From: Deltaproteobacteria bacterium | GTDB taxonomy: Bacteria; Desulfobacterota; GWC2-55-46; DRQE01 | Assembly (NCBI GenBank): GCA_015492245.1 | Contig: WGFM01000017.1 | Coordinates: 1-38,692, forward strand | Direction: 5' to 3' | Length of the DNA stretch: 38,692 nt | Shown here: piece after piece, positions 1-8,259 of the stretch | Position numbering within the stretch: position 1 is the stretch's first letter | Layout: each line of letters opens with the position of its first letter | Translations under genes and position numbers: made by a program | The notes under the pieces: generated by a model | The model's input: only the letters and a program-made list of their open reading frames with translations | Told to the model about the DNA's origin: nothing | Database searches by the model: none

Positions 1-618
1 ATTAAATTCGTGTTTAATTTGCCCTGAAAGATTATTAGTGCTGAAAATCTTCCAGCATACTGGAACAAATACTCTTTTCCCTCCACGACTTGTCCTCTCC
101 ATTTTGAAGCTAACTATCAAGTGTCTTGCATCGTGAATAACCTTGAAATCTGTTGGCCTTTCAGCAGGAGAGAAGTAGAATGCTCTTTGTGTGGTCTGGT
201 AATTTCTTTCATTATAGGTTTTGCATTCTATATAATTAGGCCTTCCTTTCCTATCCTTGACAAAAATATCCGGGCAACCTACCGCCTTTCTTCTTCCCTC
301 TTTCGTCTCCGGCCTGTCAGCTTCAAGTCCAATCTGATTCAAGGCCTCAATCATAAATACTTCAATATGATTTCCAACCTCATTTTCTCTTCGAGTAAGT
401 ATTCCTACTTTATTGGCATCTCTTGATGCTATTTTTGTTGCGCAAACCAAATCCTTTAACAACTGCTGGTCGTCAAGGTTATCTTTATCAAAGGGTATTA
501 CATTACAACCAGAAATAGATTTCATGGCAATCTTAAAAGGAATATTCTTTAAGGGCTCAAGAAATTGAGAAATCGTATCTTCCAATTCTTTTATATACTT
601 TTCCTGTTCCTTATCCAT
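1..618 (-). CDS. Type II restriction endonuclease, PD-(D/E)XK fold, 3' end outside window
   Basis: Reading the minus strand from the ATG at 616-618 gives 206 codons with no stop, running off the window edge, so the C-terminus is missing. The product carries a PD-(D/E)XK nuclease signature: CPDIFV (about residues 126-131), then a short basic hairpin and YIECKTYN (about residues 139-146). These would be the Asp and the Glu-x-Lys metal and catalytic residues. The start lies 9 bases after the stop of the DNA methyltransferase on the same strand, which is the usual layout of a restriction-modification pair. No clear Shine-Dalgarno is visible before the ATG, so translation may be coupled to the methyltransferase. 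The sequence is visibly AT-richer than regions 2-6. The cleavage site cannot be read from the sequence. Restriction function is inferred from the motif and the partner gene. Confidence 0.72.
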   Translation of the reverse strand, partial: MDKEQEKYIKELEDTISQFLEPLKNIPFKIAMKSISGCNVIPFDKDNLDDQQLLKDLVCATKIASRDANKVGILTRRENEVGNHIEVFMIEALNQIGLEADRPETKEGRRKAVGCPDIFVKDRKGRPNYIECKTYNERNYQTTQRAFYFSPAERPTDFKVIHDARHLIVSFKMERTSRGGKRVFVPVCWKIFSTNNLSGQIKHEFN

Positions 619-627
619 GTTTTTGTT

Positions 628-1884
628 TTATGGTTTTTGAAATATTAAAATATTTTCTTTTTGCATAACATTATATAGTCCGAAGATTATTTTATCTATA
701 TTTTTAACCAGCTCGAAGCCTATCTTTCTGCAACATTCAATAGAGAATTCAACGGTGTTGACTTCTTTACCCATATAAGTTGCATTTCCTACGACGATAG
801 CAGCAAACTTCTTGGGTTTTAATACCCGATACATTTCTTCATAGCTTTCTTCCATATCCTGATTGTATAAAGCGATTCTTTCTCGCCCTCGCCCTCTTAC
901 TCCCACAAATTCTTCTCTAATTTCTGGCAGATCGTATCCCAGCACTTTCAGAGCGTGGGCGTCGTTGAAGACATAATCCAGAGCTATAGAATAAGGTGGT
1001 GATGTTACAATGCCATCTATACTTTCATTCTCTAACAATAAATCTCTGGCATCTCCTCTTAAGATTCTTGTTTCTCCCAAATTTAACCTTAGTTTTCCAA
1101 CAACATCTTTAAAGTCCCTTACAGATTTAATCATCAAAATTAGATTCTTATGAAAAGATTGTTCAAAATTTCTTTTTCTTCGAGCATTATCACTTACCGC
1201 TACCAGATAAGCCATTTTGTAAAAATTTCTAACCTTTTCATCTGGTATAGAATTGATTACTTCTAAAAGGGGCTCTCCTTCCTGGTTAAAAAGACTCGGG
1301 CTGATTTTTCTGAGGATATTGTCTTTTATCTTTTCAATTGTGTCTATTGTGTCTACACTTTCGGTCTTTACTTTACTTTGAACGACACACACTGGGGAAA
1401 TATCAACACCGATACAATCGATTCCTAATAATTTTGCTTCTACAGCCGTCGTCCCACTGCCAATGAATGGGTCAAGCACTATATTACCCTTTTTTAAGCC
1501 GAGAATATTCAAAAGGGCCCGTATCATCTGAGGATGAAATTTCCCCTTATAGGGATAGATCCAGTGGGTCAAGTATTGATTCACTGAGCGAGTATTATTT
1601 TTTTGGATAATGTGGAAATAATCGGTGTATTTTCCAGCAATAATTTTGAAATAAGCCGTTCTTCCAACCAGTTCATCCAGATCGTCGTAGCGTGTAAGTC
1701 TGAATTCCCTCAATCCGTTTGTTACCTCGAAACCGATGTCCAGTTTCTCGAGCTCTAACTGTGCGAGGGCCAGTTCATATATGAATTGAACATTATCTAA
1801 GAGGACGATACTGTTCTTTTTTGTATCGCTGTTCTTCTTGTATGCCCAAGAAGTATTGATATTGTTCTTGGTTCTGGTAATCAT
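628..1884 (-). CDS. Site-specific DNA methyltransferase (N4-cytosine or N6-adenine), restriction-modification partner
   Basis: A SAM-dependent DNA amino-methyltransferase. With the ATG at 1884 the product is 418 residues. It contains motif X (YPYKGKFHPQ, about 111-120), SAM-binding motif I (DPFIGSGTT, about 138-146) and catalytic motif IV (TSPPYS, about 294-299). A long stretch between motifs I and IV could hold the target-recognition domain. An S-P-P-Y motif IV is typical of N4-cytosine enzymes, but N6-adenine cannot be excluded. The frame stays open to a TTG at 2016. I chose ATG 1884 because AAAGGAA sits just before it and the added 44 residues look non-conserved. Its role would be to protect host DNA from the endonuclease encoded immediately downstream. 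The AT-rich composition differs from regions 2-6 and suggests horizontal acquisition. Confidence 0.88.
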   Translation of the reverse strand: MITRTKNNINTSWAYKKNSDTKKNSIVLLDNVQFIYELALAQLELEKLDIGFEVTNGLREFRLTRYDDLDELVGRTAYFKIIAGKYTDYFHIIQKNNTRSVNQYLTHWIYPYKGKFHPQMIRALLNILGLKKGNIVLDPFIGSGTTAVEAKLLGIDCIGVDISPVCVVQSKVKTESVDTIDTIEKIKDNILRKISPSLFNQEGEPLLEVINSIPDEKVRNFYKMAYLVAVSDNARRKRNFEQSFHKNLILMIKSVRDFKDVVGKLRLNLGETRILRGDARDLLLENESIDGIVTSPPYSIALDYVFNDAHALKVLGYDLPEIREEFVGVRGRGRERIALYNQDMEESYEEMYRVLKPKKFAAIVVGNATYMGKEVNTVEFSIECCRKIGFELVKNIDKIIFGLYNVMQKENILIFQKP

Positions 1885-2106
1885 TTTTTCCTTTATATCT
1901 TCTGCTACAGATAGTTTTTTGTATAAGCTCCTAATTAAGTAAGTGATTGGTAATATCTTGATGGTCTTAATTGTTATACAGGATGACTTGAGCTCAATCT
2001 CTATGATTGTTTGCAAGCAAGCCTTAACAAACAGTTTAATCAGGGTGCCAACACTCTACCTCCAGGTAATCAGGAGAGGAAGTAATTACCCTTAAAGGAC
2101 AAAAAC

Positions 2107-2194
2107 TGGCGGAGAGGGACTCGAACCCTCGACAGGGCTTGAGCCATGTAACTGCTTAGCAGGCAGCTGCCTTCGACCACTTGGCCACTTCTCC
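2107..2194 (-). tRNA. tRNA-Ser(GCU), apparently defective acceptor stem
   Basis: The minus strand folds as a class II tRNA. It has a D-arm GCC/GGC, an anticodon arm GCTGC-CTGCTAA-GCAGT giving anticodon GCT (Ser, AGC/AGU), a long variable arm, a T-arm GAGGG-TTCGAGT-CCCTC, and encoded GCCA at 2107-2110. The 5' acceptor strand is GGAGAAG (2188-2194). Between the T-stem and the discriminator only TCC (2111-2113) is present where CTTCTCC would be expected, so four bases seem to be missing. The tRNA-Gln and tRNA-Leu genes here both keep the full seven bases. Another fold, GCGGAGA/TCTCCGC, leaves a 3-bp T-stem and a misplaced CCA. It may be a pseudo-tRNA left by island integration. Confidence 0.7.
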
Positions 2195-2284
2195 GCAAAA
2201 AGAACTCAATCGATTACTTAACTTCTAACACGAATCCACTCCACAATCAAGGTCTTATTCCCCATCTGTTAGAGCAAAGTGGTA

Positions 2285-2381
2285 ATGTCCTGAATAGCAA
2301 AGTAGAAGTGTCCTGTTGCATGGCTGTAAGCTTTCTCCAAAACCCTGGAGAAGACCCTCTCTAAAACAGAAAACAGGACAT
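2285..2381. repeat. Inverted-repeat structure, possible mobile-element remnant
   Basis: GTGTCCTGTT (2308-2317) and AACAGGACAT (2372-2381) form an inverted repeat, with one mismatch, around a nested hairpin (TTCTCC ... GGAGAA, about 2333-2353). A second copy of the core, ATGTCCTG, lies at 2285-2292. No protein can be supported between 2195 and 2482, so this stretch is otherwise gene-free. The repeats sit between the damaged tRNA-Ser and the radical SAM operon. They could be the end of a decayed insertion element or a structured leader RNA. I cannot tell which. Confidence 0.3.
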
Positions 2382-2414
2382 ATCTAAATTGGTTTGGCAA
2401 TTACATCCAGGGGC

Positions 2415-2527: not shown

Positions 2528-4171
2528 GTGGGCACCATCCAGAGGGAGCCGGGTGGAAAGGCCAGGGTGGCACTTGTCTATCCAAACACCTACAGGGCAG
2601 GGATGAGCAACCTGGGGTTCCAGACCATCTACAGGCTTCTGAACAGCCGCACAGATTGTGTCTGTGAAAGGGCATTCCTGCCAGAAAGAAAGACCATCGA
2701 GGAGATGACAAAGACCCATACCCCTGTGCTCGCCCTTGAATCCCAGAGCCCTCTTGACAGGTTTCACATAATAGCCTTTTCAGTATCCTTCGAAGAGGAC
2801 TACATAAATGTGCTCCGCATCCTCGAGCTATCCCGCATACCCCTCTGTTCGAAAGAGCGCAGGGGCACGCCCATTGTCATGGCAGGTGGATGTGCACCAT
2901 CCCTTAATCCAGAGCCCCTTGCAGAGTTTATAGACCTCTTCTTCATAGGCGAGGCAGAGGAAGGGCTCAACGGCCTCATGGATACTATCCTGATGAGCCT
3001 TGATATGGACAGAAAAGATGCCCTCTGTAGAATTGCTACACTGAAAAGTGTATATGTGCCTTCACTTTACGGATTCAGCTTCAGGGATGAAAGGGTTGAC
3101 TCTGTAGAACCCCTGCCCCCTGCAGGGCTGCCTGTAAAGAGGGCGATGGTGAGGGATGTAGACTCCTGCATACCCGCAACGGCCGTATTCACCCCCTCTG
3201 CCGAGTTTGGCAACACCATGCTTATTGAGACAGAAAGGGGTTGTCCCCGTGGATGCAGGTTCTGTGCCGCAGGCTTTCTCTACCTTCCACCACGATGGAG
3301 AAAGAGAGGGCTCATAGAAGAATACATGGAGCACATGCCTGCCCATATAAGACGGGTGGGGCTTGTGGGCTCTGCCGTGTCTGAATATCCTGGGCTCAAG
3401 GAGATATTGAGGGGGTTCTCCCACAGGCTCGATATAACCCTGTCATCTCTGAGGCTCGATGTGCTCGACGAAGAACTCCTGGGGCTTCTTAAGTCCTGCG
3501 GCCATACCACCATAACGGTGGCCCCAGAGGCAGGCTCGGAAAGACTGAGAAGGATCATAAACAAACCCCTGGGTGATGAGGAGATAGTCCAGGCACTGGG
3601 GCTCATACAGTCTGCAGGGTTCAAAAGGCTGAAGCTCTACTTCATGATAGGACTTCCCGGGGAGACAGATGACGACATAATCCTGATGGCAGGGCTTATA
3701 GCCAGGGCAAGGGAGATCCTCCGTGGGGGGCACATAACGGTAAGTGTAACCCCCTTCGTGCCCAAACCCATTACGCCTTTTCAGTGGCACAGGTTTGAAG
3801 AGCCGCAAACACTGAGGGCACGCTACAGGCTTTTGAAGAAGCGGCTCGGGGGCATGAAGGGGGTGGAGATAAAGCCTGTATCCATAGATGGTGCCCTTGT
3901 GCAGGCATATCTCTCAAGGGCAGACAGAAGGGCCTCCGGGATACTTACAAGGGCACTCCGGGTGGGCTGGAAAAAGACACTTGAAGAGAGAAAAGGGCTT
4001 ATCCATGCCTCTGTCCACAGGATGAGAGACCAGGGGGAGGTCCTTCCATGGGACATTATAGACTGTGGTATAAGAAAGAGCTACCTCTGGGATGAATACA
4101 TGAGGGCTCTTGCAGAAAAGACCACCCCACCCTGCAGACCCGAGGTATGCACAAGGTGTGGAGTATGCTGA
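2528..4171 (+). CDS. B12-binding-type radical SAM protein (TIGR03960-like), first of two tandem paralogs
   Basis: Counted from the GTG at 2528 this is 547 residues. The N-terminal half has the cobalamin-binding-like fold common to these proteins (VALVYPNTYRAGMSNLG, GGCAPSLNPEP, FFIGEAEEG). The radical SAM core begins with the CxxxCxxC cluster motif CPRGCRFC near residue 239, followed by APEAGSERLR and LYFMIGLPGE. The protein stops exactly after a C-terminal Cys motif, CRPEVCTRCGVC. The frame is open upstream, and the segment from ATC 2483 (start IWKIKKELKEIL) resembles the usual family N-terminus. It is preceded by AGGAGG (2467-2472), so the real start may be a rare ATC codon. The substrate is unknown. 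The gene is co-directional with the fused paralog and RNase G, which suggests an RNA- or translation-related role (inference). Confidence 0.85.
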   Translation: MGTIQREPGGKARVALVYPNTYRAGMSNLGFQTIYRLLNSRTDCVCERAFLPERKTIEEMTKTHTPVLALESQSPLDRFHIIAFSVSFEEDYINVLRILELSRIPLCSKERRGTPIVMAGGCAPSLNPEPLAEFIDLFFIGEAEEGLNGLMDTILMSLDMDRKDALCRIATLKSVYVPSLYGFSFRDERVDSVEPLPPAGLPVKRAMVRDVDSCIPATAVFTPSAEFGNTMLIETERGCPRGCRFCAAGFLYLPPRWRKRGLIEEYMEHMPAHIRRVGLVGSAVSEYPGLKEILRGFSHRLDITLSSLRLDVLDEELLGLLKSCGHTTITVAPEAGSERLRRIINKPLGDEEIVQALGLIQSAGFKRLKLYFMIGLPGETDDDIILMAGLIARAREILRGGHITVSVTPFVPKPITPFQWHRFEEPQTLRARYRLLKKRLGGMKGVEIKPVSIDGALVQAYLSRADRRASGILTRALRVGWKKTLEERKGLIHASVHRMRDQGEVLPWDIIDCGIRKSYLWDEYMRALAEKTTPPCRPEVCTRCGVC

Positions 4172-4195
4172 CTCAAGGAGGCAGAACAATACCAT

Positions 4196-6730
4196 ATGCA
4201 TAAAAGTGTGGAACCATTCCTTAACAATATAACACGGCCTGCAAGATACATAGACAGCGAGGTAAATACGGTAAAGAAAGATATTAAGAAGGTGGACCTC
4301 CTCTTTGGCCTTGCCTTCCCGGATACCTATGAGGTTGGCATGAGTCATCTGGGGATACAGATACTCTACCATGTTCTGAACTCACAACCCCACATAGCCT
4401 GTGAACGGGTGTTTGCCCCATGGGAGGACATGGAGAGACTCTTGAGGAAGGAGGGGCTGCCTCTTACAACCCTTGAGTCAGCCATACCCCTTAAGGAACT
4501 CCATGTGGTGGGCTTCTCGATCCAGTACGAGCTCTGCTACACCAACATACTCAACATGCTCGAGCTTGGTGGAATAACCCTTCTTTCTGCAGACAGGGCT
4601 GAACAGGAGCCCTTCGTTATAGGCGGTGGCCCCGGTGTCTTCAACCCCGAGCCTGTGGCCCCATTTTTCGACCTCTTCCTTCTTGGAGACGGTGAGAAGG
4701 CGATAGTAGAGATATGCGACACAATCCTTGAGGGCAGACAGAAGGGGCTTAAAAGGATGGAAATCCTTGAAAACCTTGCCGCCATCGAGGGTGTGTATGT
4801 GCCGGCATTCTTCGATGTAAGCTACAACTCAGATGGCACCCTGAAGGAAGTCAAACCCCTGCTTTCCGGCTACAGGGTCAGAAGGAGGGTGGAGCCAGAT
4901 ATAGAGGGGCTGCCCTTTCCCACAAGACCTGTTGTGCCCTGTCTTCAGACCATACATGACCGGCTAACCATAGAGATAGCCCGTGGGTGCACGAGGGCAT
5001 GCAGGTTCTGCCAGGCAGGCATGATATACAGGCCCATAAGGGAGAGGTCCCCCCACCGTGTAATAGAGCTTGTAAGAGAGGGGCTCAAGAACACAGGGTT
5101 CGAAGAGGTATCCCTGCTTTCCCTGAGCACAGGTGATTATACAGCCATCGAGGAGCTTCTGGTATCCCTCATGCACATACTGGAGGACAGGCATGTGGCA
5201 CTATCTCTACCATCCCTGAGGGTGGGCACCATTGACAAAAGCCTTGCAGAACAAATCAAACGGGTGAGAAAGACAGGGTTCACCCTTGCCCCTGAGTCAG
5301 GCACCGAAAGGCTCAGAAAGGTGATAAACAAGGTCATAGAGGAAGAGGCGCTCCTCGAATGGACAGACCATATCTTCACACTCGGCTGGAGGAGTGTAAA
5401 GCTGTATTTCATGATAGGCCTTCCAACAGAGTCAGCCGAAGACATGGAGGCCATAATAGAGCTTGCCAGAAAGGTGGCAACAAGGGGCAAAGATATAGTT
5501 GGCCGTCGTCCTCAGGTCAATGTAAGTGTGGGCACCTTCGTGCCAAAGCCCTTCACCCCCTTCCAGTGGGAGCCACAGCTCTCCCCCGAAGAGAGCAGAA
5601 GAAGGCTCGATGTCCTCAAAGGGCTTGCAAGAAGATGCAGGCTCGAGTTCAAATGGCACCATCCAGAGATGAGCCACCTGGAAGGGGTCTTCTCGAGGGG
5701 AGATAGAAGGCTCTCAAGGGTCATACTCCGTGCATACAGGGCGGGCTCGAGGTTCGATGGGTGGACAGAAAGACTCAACATGAGGGCATGGCAGGATGCC
5801 TTCAGTGCCGAAGGGCTCTCCATGGACTTCTATACCATAAGACGGCGCCCACTGGATGAGGTCCTTCCGTGGGACCACTTAGACTGTGGCGTTACAAAGG
5901 ATTACCTCCTAGAGGACTACAAACGGGCCATTGAGCTTGCAACCACACCTGACTGCAGGACAGAGCGCTGTACCAGATGCGGGGTGTGTGATCACAAGAG
6001 GATAAAGAATGTGGTCTTCAAACCCGAGGGGCTGCCCATCAGACGGACAAAACCAGGGCCATGGATGGACAGACCCCTGCGCGCAAGGATGCACTTTTCG
6101 AAGATGGGAAAGATGAGGTATCTAAGCCACCTCGAGCTTTCCAGAACCCTTGCAAGGGCTGTAAGAAGGGCAGGGCTGCCTGTAAGATACTCCGGTGGTT
6201 TTCATCCCATGCCCAGGATGGCCTTTCTGAATCCCCTGCCTGTCGGCATTGCAAGCCTCGATGAGTACATGGATATGGAGCTCGAGGCAGCACATCTATC
6301 CGAAGAAGAGATAAAGGAAAGGCTCAACCACACCCTGCCAGATGGGATAAGGGTCGGTTCTGTAAGATTTATATCCTTGCAACTTCCTTCACTCTCTGTT
6401 ATGATGAAGGCACAAGAGTTTCTAATATCCCTTGAAGACAGCCCTTTGGGTTTGAATATAGACAGAGAGAGATTTCAAAGAGAGATTGAGAGTTTTCTGG
6501 CAAAGGATGAAATCCCCATGGAAGTAACAAAAGGCGAGAAGAAAAGAGTAATTGATCTAAAACCCTTCATTGAAAGACTCTGTGTAGACCAGAGGGGTAA
6601 CATTTCACTCATCCTCAAGGAAACACGGCAGGGACGGACAAGACCACAGGATGTTCTGAGGGCCCTGTTCGGGCTGCCGCCAGAAAAGGCCTCTCTTGTT
6701 CCAATCCTCAAGGTAAAGACCTTGTTTTAG
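4196..6730 (+). CDS. B12-binding-type radical SAM protein fused to DUF2344 (TIGR03960 + TIGR03936-like)
   Basis: An 844-residue fusion. Residues 1 to about 600 parallel the upstream protein. They include a cobalamin-binding-like N-terminus (GLAFPDTYEVGMSHLG, GGGPGVFNPEPVAPFF), the radical SAM cluster motif CTRACRFC near residue 265, APESGTERLR, LYFMIGLPTE, and a Cys motif CRTERCTRCGVC near 588-599. After a linker the C-terminal part (about 622-844) matches the DUF2344 radical-SAM-linked domain (RMHFSKMGKMRYLSHLEL, SGGFHPMPRMAF). In many bacteria the radical SAM and DUF2344 parts lie next to RNase G and the L21/L27 genes. Here RNase G follows about 50 bases downstream. AAGGAGG at 4175-4181 precedes the ATG. 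The reaction is not known. Confidence 0.88.
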   Translation: MHKSVEPFLNNITRPARYIDSEVNTVKKDIKKVDLLFGLAFPDTYEVGMSHLGIQILYHVLNSQPHIACERVFAPWEDMERLLRKEGLPLTTLESAIPLKELHVVGFSIQYELCYTNILNMLELGGITLLSADRAEQEPFVIGGGPGVFNPEPVAPFFDLFLLGDGEKAIVEICDTILEGRQKGLKRMEILENLAAIEGVYVPAFFDVSYNSDGTLKEVKPLLSGYRVRRRVEPDIEGLPFPTRPVVPCLQTIHDRLTIEIARGCTRACRFCQAGMIYRPIRERSPHRVIELVREGLKNTGFEEVSLLSLSTGDYTAIEELLVSLMHILEDRHVALSLPSLRVGTIDKSLAEQIKRVRKTGFTLAPESGTERLRKVINKVIEEEALLEWTDHIFTLGWRSVKLYFMIGLPTESAEDMEAIIELARKVATRGKDIVGRRPQVNVSVGTFVPKPFTPFQWEPQLSPEESRRRLDVLKGLARRCRLEFKWHHPEMSHLEGVFSRGDRRLSRVILRAYRAGSRFDGWTERLNMRAWQDAFSAEGLSMDFYTIRRRPLDEVLPWDHLDCGVTKDYLLEDYKRAIELATTPDCRTERCTRCGVCDHKRIKNVVFKPEGLPIRRTKPGPWMDRPLRARMHFSKMGKMRYLSHLELSRTLARAVRRAGLPVRYSGGFHPMPRMAFLNPLPVGIASLDEYMDMELEAAHLSEEEIKERLNHTLPDGIRVGSVRFISLQLPSLSVMMKAQEFLISLEDSPLGLNIDRERFQREIESFLAKDEIPMEVTKGEKKRVIDLKPFIERLCVDQRGNISLILKETRQGRTRPQDVLRALFGLPPEKASLVPILKVKTLF

Positions 6731-6783
6731 TTTAAGCTTCTCAAAGGGCTGTCAACAGGTATTCAGGGGTTTACTTTTTGGGG

Positions 6784-8259
6784 ATGAAAGTGCCTGTAAA
6801 AGAAATACTTCTTGACGCCAATCCCTTTGAGAAGCGTCTTTCCGTGCTCGAAGATGGAGTGCTTGCAGAATTCCACATCGAGCACAGGAAAGACCGAACC
6901 ATAACTGGCAACATCTACAAGGGCCGTGTTGTAAATGTGCTTCCTGGCATGCAGGCAGCCTTCGTGGATGTGGGGCTTGAAAGAACCGCCTTTCTGCATG
7001 TAACAGATGTGCTCGATACCATAGACTCACTCTACGAAGAACTCCCCAGAGAGATACAGAAAGGCCAGTCCCCGCGAATAGAGAAGATACTCAAAGAGGG
7101 ACAGGATATTATCGTGCAGGTGGAAAAAGAGCCTGTGGGCACAAAGGGGGCAAGGCTTACCTCCTACATAACGCTGCCTGGAAGATACCTTGTGCTAATG
7201 CCCACATACGAGAAGGTGGGGGTGTCGAGAAAGATAGAGGAGGAGCGGGAGAGAAAAAGACTTAAAAGCCTTGTCCAAAAACTCAAACCACCTGGTTACG
7301 GGTTCATAATAAGAACCGTGTGTGAGGGCAGAAGGGCAGAAGAGATACAGGCCGATATGGACTACCTGGTAAAACGCTGGGAGAGCATAAAGGAGAAACT
7401 TGCCTCCTCCAGGGTTCCTTCACTACTCTATGAGGAGCCAGACCTTACACTGCGTGCCATAAGGGATATGTTCACACCCAATGTGCGCTCGTTCATCATA
7501 GACTCCAAGGAGGAGTATGAACGGGCAAGGGCATTCACAGAACGGTTCATGCCAGAGCTGTCTTCAAGGATAAAGCTGCATACCGGGGATGTCCCCCTGT
7601 TCGATACCCGCGGTATAGAGGTGGAGCTTGAAAAAGCTCTATCCAGAACGGTCTACCTGCCTTCAGGCGGCTACATAGTCATAGACCAGATGGAGGCACT
7701 TACTGCAATAGATGTGAACACAGGTCGTTACATCGGCAGGAGAAGCTCTGATGAGACCATTCTGAGGACCAACCTTGAGGCAACGAGAGAGATAGTAAGA
7801 CAACTCAAACTGCGTAACATCGGGGGCATAATAATCATAGATTTTATAGACATGACACGCCAGTCAGACCGTGAAAGGGTCTACCGCACGCTGCGCGAGG
7901 AACTTGGTGAGGACAGGGCACGCACCAATATACTCAAGATATCAGAGCTCGGCATAGTGGAGATGACTCGCAAACGAATACGCGAAAGCCTGCAACAGAG
8001 CCTGCTCGAGATGTGTCCCTACTGTGATGGCAATGGGCTGGTGAAAAGAAGAGATGCCGTGGCAACAGAGATATACAGAGAACTGGTAAGAGAACTACCC
8101 CACAAAAGTGGCCGTGTATATCTATATGTGAACCCCCAGATTGCAGAACTGCTTCAACACAGAGAGGGGGTTATAGAAGAGGTAAGAAAATGGTTCAAGA
8201 ACCGCATAGTGGTTGTACCTGTTGAGACCTTCCACAGGGAAGAATACGAGATAGTCTGA
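6784..8259 (+). CDS. rng: Ribonuclease G (Rne/Rng family)
   Basis: A 491-residue RNase E/G-family endoribonuclease for rRNA and mRNA processing. An S1 RNA-binding domain lies in the first ~100 residues (GNIYKGRVVNVLPGMQAAFV). The catalytic metal-binding Asp residues are D310 (IDVNTG) and D353 (DFIDM), the same 43-residue spacing as in E. coli RNase E. The zinc-link motif CPYCDGNG starts at residue 411. The length fits RNase G, without the long RNase E scaffold tail. I chose the ATG at 6784, and an in-frame TTG at 6778 is possible. It probably shares a transcript with the two radical SAM genes. It converges with ychF, and only 5 bases separate the two stops, with no evident terminator between them. 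Confidence 0.96.
   Translation: MKVPVKEILLDANPFEKRLSVLEDGVLAEFHIEHRKDRTITGNIYKGRVVNVLPGMQAAFVDVGLERTAFLHVTDVLDTIDSLYEELPREIQKGQSPRIEKILKEGQDIIVQVEKEPVGTKGARLTSYITLPGRYLVLMPTYEKVGVSRKIEEERERKRLKSLVQKLKPPGYGFIIRTVCEGRRAEEIQADMDYLVKRWESIKEKLASSRVPSLLYEEPDLTLRAIRDMFTPNVRSFIIDSKEEYERARAFTERFMPELSSRIKLHTGDVPLFDTRGIEVELEKALSRTVYLPSGGYIVIDQMEALTAIDVNTGRYIGRRSSDETILRTNLEATREIVRQLKLRNIGGIIIIDFIDMTRQSDRERVYRTLREELGEDRARTNILKISELGIVEMTRKRIRESLQQSLLEMCPYCDGNGLVKRRDAVATEIYRELVRELPHKSGRVYLYVNPQIAELLQHREGVIEEVRKWFKNRIVVVPVETFHREEYEIV

What the first reader, a model, noticed from the sequence alone, without database searches (positions are those of the whole stretch)
2107..2194. tRNA-Ser(GCU) lacks four bases of its acceptor stem at an island-like boundary
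All other arms are intact and the gene encodes GCCA, but only TCC lies between the T-stem and the discriminator, where seven bases pairing with GGAGAAG are needed. The pattern equals loss of CTTC from a CTTCTCC strand. The two other tRNA genes here are complete. Directly 3' of it lies an AT-rich restriction-modification pair. tRNA 3' ends are classic integration sites, so this may be a tRNA broken at an island edge, with a working copy elsewhere, or a tRNA with an unusual short acceptor/T stack.
Basis: partly seen in the sequence, partly recalled or inferred. Interest (0 to 1): 0.6.

Follow-up and report, generated by a model that had tools for sequence, protein, structure and literature searches.

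The report
Broken passenger tRNA-Ser(GCU) in small insertion
A serine tRNA gene that really lacks four bases of its acceptor stem sits, with a restriction-modification pair, inside a small DNA insertion that is absent from related bacteria, so it is most likely a defective passenger gene and not a new kind of tRNA.

Summary
The tRNA-Ser(GCU) at 2107-2194(-) has intact D, anticodon and T arms, but only TCC between the T-stem and the GCCA end. No pairing register gives the 12-bp acceptor/T stack (8-10 bp). Among 52 Ser(GCU) genes matched in 50 of 63 genomes of the class, only this one is short.

The tRNA is not an attachment site broken by integration. It is cargo inside a ~2,755-bp insertion, together with a type II restriction-modification pair. 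The insertion is flanked by 19-bp direct repeats. The sibling species HyVt-575 has the empty site. Two further family members keep the flanking genes adjacent without a tRNA. The tRNA looks foreign: 78% mean identity to relatives' genes, which are 95% identical to each other.

No second Ser(GCU) was found in the assembly. However, the assembly also lacks tRNA-Asn, Ile(GAU) and Ala(UGC), and 7 of 44 good-quality class genomes gave no match to the Ser(GCU) pattern. A working copy in an assembly gap is the best explanation. Assembly error or a functional short tRNA are not excluded.

The parts
2107..2194 (-). tRNA-Ser(GCU) gene, class II, encoded GCCA; acceptor 3' strand is three bases instead of seven
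2110..2117 (-). junction where the four bases are missing: T-stem CCCTC runs straight into TCC (CCCTCTCC); 29 aligned relatives' genes have the full 7-base strand here
   Evidence: sequence; alignment of 29 relatives; listing
628..2016 (-). type II DNA methyltransferase ORF (N6_N4_Mtase), cargo of the insertion
1..618 (-). type II restriction enzyme ORF; runs on into contig C19 of the same genome (224 aa in all)
   Evidence: REase_II, E 6.8e-36; continuation; 46% identical to the partner next to the related methyltransferase in G194
2273..2307 (+). right copy of a 35-bp direct repeat (34 of 35 identical); the left copy lies at C19:452-486 beyond the window edge
2395..2413 (+). right copy of the 19-bp direct repeat (18 of 19 identical) that flanks the insertion, probable target-site duplication; left copy at C19:494-512
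   Evidence: HyVt-575 has one diverged copy at L075 ~4447
1..2394 (.). the part of the ~2,755-bp insertion that lies in the window (absent from HyVt-575)
2528..4171 (+). core radical SAM gene that bounds the insertion on the right; the left bounding gene is at C19:507-1574

Best explanation
A ~2.75-kb mobile or formerly mobile segment carrying a type II restriction-modification pair and a foreign-looking tRNA-Ser(GCU) inserted between two divergently transcribed core genes, leaving a ~19-bp duplication. The tRNA has since lost four bases at the T-stem/acceptor junction. It can no longer form the 7+5 bp acceptor/T helix that SerRS, RNase P and EF-Tu expect, so it is a pseudogene or nearly so. 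Decoding of AGC/AGU is done by a normal tRNA-Ser(GCU) that is missing from this draft assembly. Shown: the defect, the insertion and its empty site, the flanking repeats, the divergence of the tRNA, and that no second copy was found in the assembly. Inferred: loss of function, foreign origin, and the existence of the missing working copy.
For: Defect. Empty site in HyVt-575, with only ~7 bp between C19:520 and window 2395, both flanks ~80% identical. Bounding genes adjacent and no tRNA in three family members (L252 = HyVt-575, L253, L254). Direct repeats of 19 and 35 bp; the core of the 35-bp repeat occurs only twice in the genome and in none of 296 other phylum genomes searched with up to 2 mismatches. 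Divergence: window tRNA against 29 relatives mean 0.778, max 0.816; relatives among themselves mean 0.946, min 0.880. Assembly gaps: among the 39 tRNA genes found there is no Asn(GTT), Ile(GAT) or Ala(TGC), whereas HyVt-575 has Asn(GTT) and Val(CAC). Dropout rate: 7 of 44 genomes of the class with at least 90% completeness (this one included in the 44) gave no match to the Ser(GCU) pattern. In two of these, G003 and G007, the class II tRNA genes I fetched held no Ser(GCU) either. AGC/AGT are ordinary codons in 12 ORFs of the window, 123 of 6,783 codons, so a working decoder is needed.
Against: No second Ser(GCU) was found in an assembly rated 100% complete, and none at the ends of its contigs. 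In both genomes of the genus the tRNA-Arg(ACG) locus, which holds Ser(GCU) nearby in 14 of 29 fetched relatives' loci, has no Ser(GCU). The native copy may therefore really be lost and this one may be the only gene. Contig C18 (2,857 bases) is withheld and reads N. D-stem, anticodon stem and T-stem are undamaged, and the variable arm shows paired changes relative to relatives, so the gene was probably functional until recently.
Confidence: 0.7

Rival explanations
1. The four-base gap is an assembly or sequencing error, and the tRNA is intact. It could then be the lineage's only Ser(GCU), a horizontally acquired replacement of the native gene.
For: It is the only Ser(GCU) found in the genome. 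The native site next to tRNA-Arg(ACG) is empty in both genomes of the genus. All other arms are intact. Contig C17 breaks 2 kb away with a 151-bp overlap to C19, which suggests a branching point in the assembly graph.
Against: Small deletions in non-repetitive sequence are unusual errors for an assembly with 151-bp overlaps (inference). The stretch is not a homopolymer. The two other tRNAs of the window are complete.
Confidence: 0.15
2. The gene is the sole functional Ser(GCU) and works with a short or register-shifted acceptor/T stack (7+3 bp using two upstream bases, with the CCA end added after processing).
For: GCGGAGA can pair with TCTCCGC over seven bases next to a 3-bp T-stem. It is the only copy found. 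SerRS tolerates unusual acceptor geometries: 8/5, 9/4 and 8/4 tRNA-Sec and 8/4 or 9/3 allo-tRNAs (PMC7609411, passages seen).
Against: The total is 10 bp at most, below the 12-13 bp of the serine-type forms named in those passages. The encoded CCA would be lost from the end. The upstream GC occurs in 4 of 29 relatives by chance. No relative shares the short form (1 of 395 phylum genomes). No sigma-70-like promoter was found on the tRNA's strand in 1950-2560 (a weak test).
Confidence: 0.04
3. One reading: an island integrated into the tRNA 3' end and damaged it.
For: The restriction-modification genes lie directly 3' of the tRNA.
Against: The tRNA is itself absent from the empty site in HyVt-575 and sits inside the insertion. 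The flanking repeat is not tRNA sequence. There is no tRNA fragment at the far end and no integrase-like ORF was seen in the 2.75 kb.
Confidence: 0.05

Closest known systems
tRNA pseudogenes / decaying extra tRNA genes on bacterial mobile elements
   Same: extra tRNA-like gene carried in an insertion that siblings lack, with a structural defect in the acceptor stem
   Different: no intact second copy could be shown in this assembly
Type II restriction-modification islets inserted between core genes
   Same: methyltransferase and restriction enzyme side by side, AT-rich, flanked by direct repeats; a related pair (60% and 46% identical) occurs in another family of the phylum (G194, L242)
   Different: here a tRNA gene travels with it; none of the nine related methyltransferase loci (eight genomes) checked has a tRNA
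IS1202-type insertion sequences with long target duplications (PMC10132070, passages seen)
   Same: a 19-bp flanking duplication lies in the 16-28 bp range given for the long-TSD group; sub-terminal ATGTCCTG / CAGGACAT motifs in inverted orientation
   Different: no transposase gene in the insertion, so the likeness is a lead only
allo-tRNA and tRNA-Sec (non-7/5 class II serine tRNAs; PMC7609411, passages seen)
   Same: class II, serine-type, acceptor/T-stem split different from 7/5
   Different: those keep 12 or 13 bp in the stack; this one reaches 8-10

Membership tests
functional bacterial tRNA-Ser(GCU) | GCU anticodon, long variable arm, intact D, anticodon and T arms | tested here: met
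   the variable arm has one U-C mismatch (seen in the sequence)
functional bacterial tRNA-Ser(GCU) | 7-bp acceptor stem stacked on a 5-bp T-stem (12 bp in all) | tested here: not met
   8 bp in the normal register, at most 10 in any register
functional bacterial tRNA-Ser(GCU) | expressed, processed and serylated | not testable with these tools
   needs RNA data; consensus promoter scan uninformative
tRNA pseudogene | homologous to a tRNA but with a defect that prevents the normal fold | tested here: met
tRNA pseudogene | an intact isoacceptor elsewhere in the genome covers the codon | tested here: inconclusive
   none found in the assembly, but the assembly lacks other essential tRNAs and one contig is masked
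island integrated at a tRNA 3' end | flanking repeats derived from the tRNA 3' end, integrase, tRNA present in the empty site | tested here: not met
allo-tRNA | 8/4 or 9/3 acceptor/T split with 12 bp in all | tested here: not met
type II restriction-modification system | adjacent methyltransferase and restriction endonuclease of type II families | tested here: met
   activity not tested
IS1202-type transposition | long target duplication (16-28 bp) | tested here: met
   19 bp; range from PMC10132070
IS1202-type transposition | IS1202-family transposase | tested here: not met
   the long ORFs of the 2.75-kb insertion are the restriction-modification genes; the small ORFs were not searched

The most novel reading that the evidence does not exclude
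The lineage lost its native tRNA-Ser(GCU) and now depends on this island-borne gene, whose RNA is used with a 10-bp (7+3) acceptor/T stack formed with two 5' leader bases, with CCA added after processing. It would be an exceptionally short stack for a bacterial elongator tRNA.
Probability: 0.03. Interest if true: 0.85.

Novelty: new member of a known kind. Interest (0 to 1): 0.17.

Why it matters
If the usual reading holds, it is an ordinary case of a small insertion that carried a restriction-modification pair and a spare tRNA that decayed; it also shows that 'complete' metagenome assemblies can miss essential tRNAs. If this were the only, working Ser(GCU), it would break the 12-bp rule for bacterial tRNAs.

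Tried and rejected
Attachment-site model: rejected, since the tRNA is inside the insertion.

Second copy or att fragment in the genome: none. The 17-base exact match at C5:10616-10632 lies in a stretch where ARAGORN finds no tRNA, so I treat it as chance.

Conserved short form in relatives: none.

Phage or plasmid origin of the tRNA: only weak partial matches. Exact patterns in viral contigs gave nothing.

Restriction-modification genes with a tRNA elsewhere: no tRNA in nine related loci of eight genomes.

Source of the 35-bp repeat: no convincing match in plasmids, none in viral contigs, none in 296 other phylum genomes.

Literature: four searches on shortened or pseudo tRNAs, allo-tRNAs, islands with tRNAs and horizontal tRNA transfer (listings only) and one on IS1202. 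I saw passages of PMC7609411 and PMC10132070 only. None of the listings described this case; that is a statement about these searches only.

Full report
Observation. The minus strand of 2107-2194 encodes a class II tRNA-Ser(GCU). Its T-stem GAGGG/CCCTC is followed by TCC, G and CCA, so the acceptor 3' strand has three bases where GGAGAAG needs seven. Infernal gives 41.8 bits, against 60.1 and 59.0 for the complete tRNA-Gln and tRNA-Leu in the window. A full enumeration of registers gives 8 bp in the normal register. Ten bp are possible if two upstream bases (GC) join the acceptor stem, but then the encoded CCA is no longer the end. GC precedes the Ser(GCU) gene in 4 of 29 relatives anyway.

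Is it shared? In the class, a pattern that allows 2-10 bases at that place matched 52 genes in 50 of 63 genomes. By eye, 51 carry the full strand and only the window's is short. A pattern for the short form matched 1 of 395 phylum genomes, this one. An alignment of 29 relatives' genes with the window's gave 0.946 mean identity among relatives and 0.778 between window and relatives (MAFFT placed the gap near the 3' end, which slightly lowers the window values). The differences include paired changes in the variable arm plus one mismatch there, so the gene looks like a diverged foreign isoacceptor and not like the native gene in plain decay. That is an inference.

Only copy in the assembly. The genome (1.88 Mb, 35 contigs, rated 100% complete) has 39 RF00005 matches. 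All 39 were read with ARAGORN; one is Ser(GCU), this one. A BLAST search of the genome with the tRNA at E up to 10 found no other. Nor did a full-length relative's gene compared with the fetched stretches, which include both ends of all contigs except that C18 is withheld and reads N. But Asn(GTT), Ile(GAT) and Ala(TGC) are missing too. Neither of the two CAT tRNAs looks like an initiator (my recall of initiator features, not tested). HyVt-575 of the same genus has Asn(GTT). Of 44 class genomes of at least 90% completeness (this one included), 7 gave no match to the Ser(GCU) pattern. For G003 and G007, the class II tRNA genes I fetched held no Ser(GCU); the table was cut at its weak end. Such gaps are therefore common. 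Against this, the tRNA-Arg(ACG) locus, where 14 of 29 relatives' fetched loci show Ser(GCU) nearby, carries none in either genome of this genus. AGC and AGT make up 123 of 6,783 codons in 12 ORFs of the window, so some working decoder must exist.

Surroundings. Contig C17 (the window begins at its base 1) overlaps C19 by 151 bases. Against the joined locus, HyVt-575 (L075; its genome gave the same tRNA coordinates as G001) aligns on both sides at ~80% with only ~7 bp between the two blocks. The piece missing in HyVt-575 is about 2,755 bp. It holds the type II methyltransferase and restriction enzyme and the tRNA. It is flanked by 19-bp direct repeats (18 of 19) and contains two 35-bp direct repeats (34 of 35). 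Two further family members, G007 and G008, keep the two bounding genes adjacent without a tRNA (3 of 19 loci, HyVt-575 included, showed the left gene within their flanks; the other 16 did not, so they do not speak to polarity; none of the 19 has a tRNA there). The insertion is therefore derived, and the tRNA came with it or into it. The best-matching relative of the methyltransferase, in G194 (60%), has a matching restriction gene (46%) and no tRNA.

Mechanism. The most economical account is a small transposon-like insertion with a ~19-bp target duplication that carried the restriction-modification pair and a spare Ser(GCU), followed by a four-base deletion in the unneeded tRNA. Long target duplications are known for one IS1202 group (16-28 bp; PMC10132070, passages), but there is no transposase gene among the long ORFs here. 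SerRS prefers a 12-bp acceptor domain, and the unusual serine-type tRNAs named in PMC7609411 keep 12-13 bp (passages), so an 8-10 bp stack is unlikely to work. That RNase P and EF-Tu also expect the 12-bp stack is recalled, not looked up. Assembly error cannot be excluded without reads.

Verdict. The explanation is ordinary with one open point: where the working Ser(GCU) gene is.

Noticed in passing
G000 contigs C15 end / C9 start (L012, L011): The assembly breaks exactly at tRNA-Arg(ACG); the two contigs overlap by 86 bp there while most other joins overlap by 151 bp. The C9 side does not align with HyVt-575 beyond the tRNA, so a tRNA-Arg integration is possible.
   Followed up: partly
G003, G007, G009, G035 and G001 (same class): Genomes rated 92-100% complete gave no match to the Ser(GCU) pattern; assembly gaps at tRNA genes seem common in this group.
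   Followed up: partly
window 2528-6730: Two tandem radical SAM genes (Radical_SAM_N2; the second with DUF2344) followed by an RNase E/G gene at 6778-8259; HyVt-575 is collinear over this stretch.
   Followed up: no
window 2284-2394: About 100 bp with ATGTCCTG at one end and CAGGACAT at the other, next to the right flanking repeat; looks like a small transposon remnant.
   Followed up: partly
G000:C18 (2,857 bases): The fetched stretches of this contig read N (withheld); its content could not be checked for tRNA genes.
   Followed up: no
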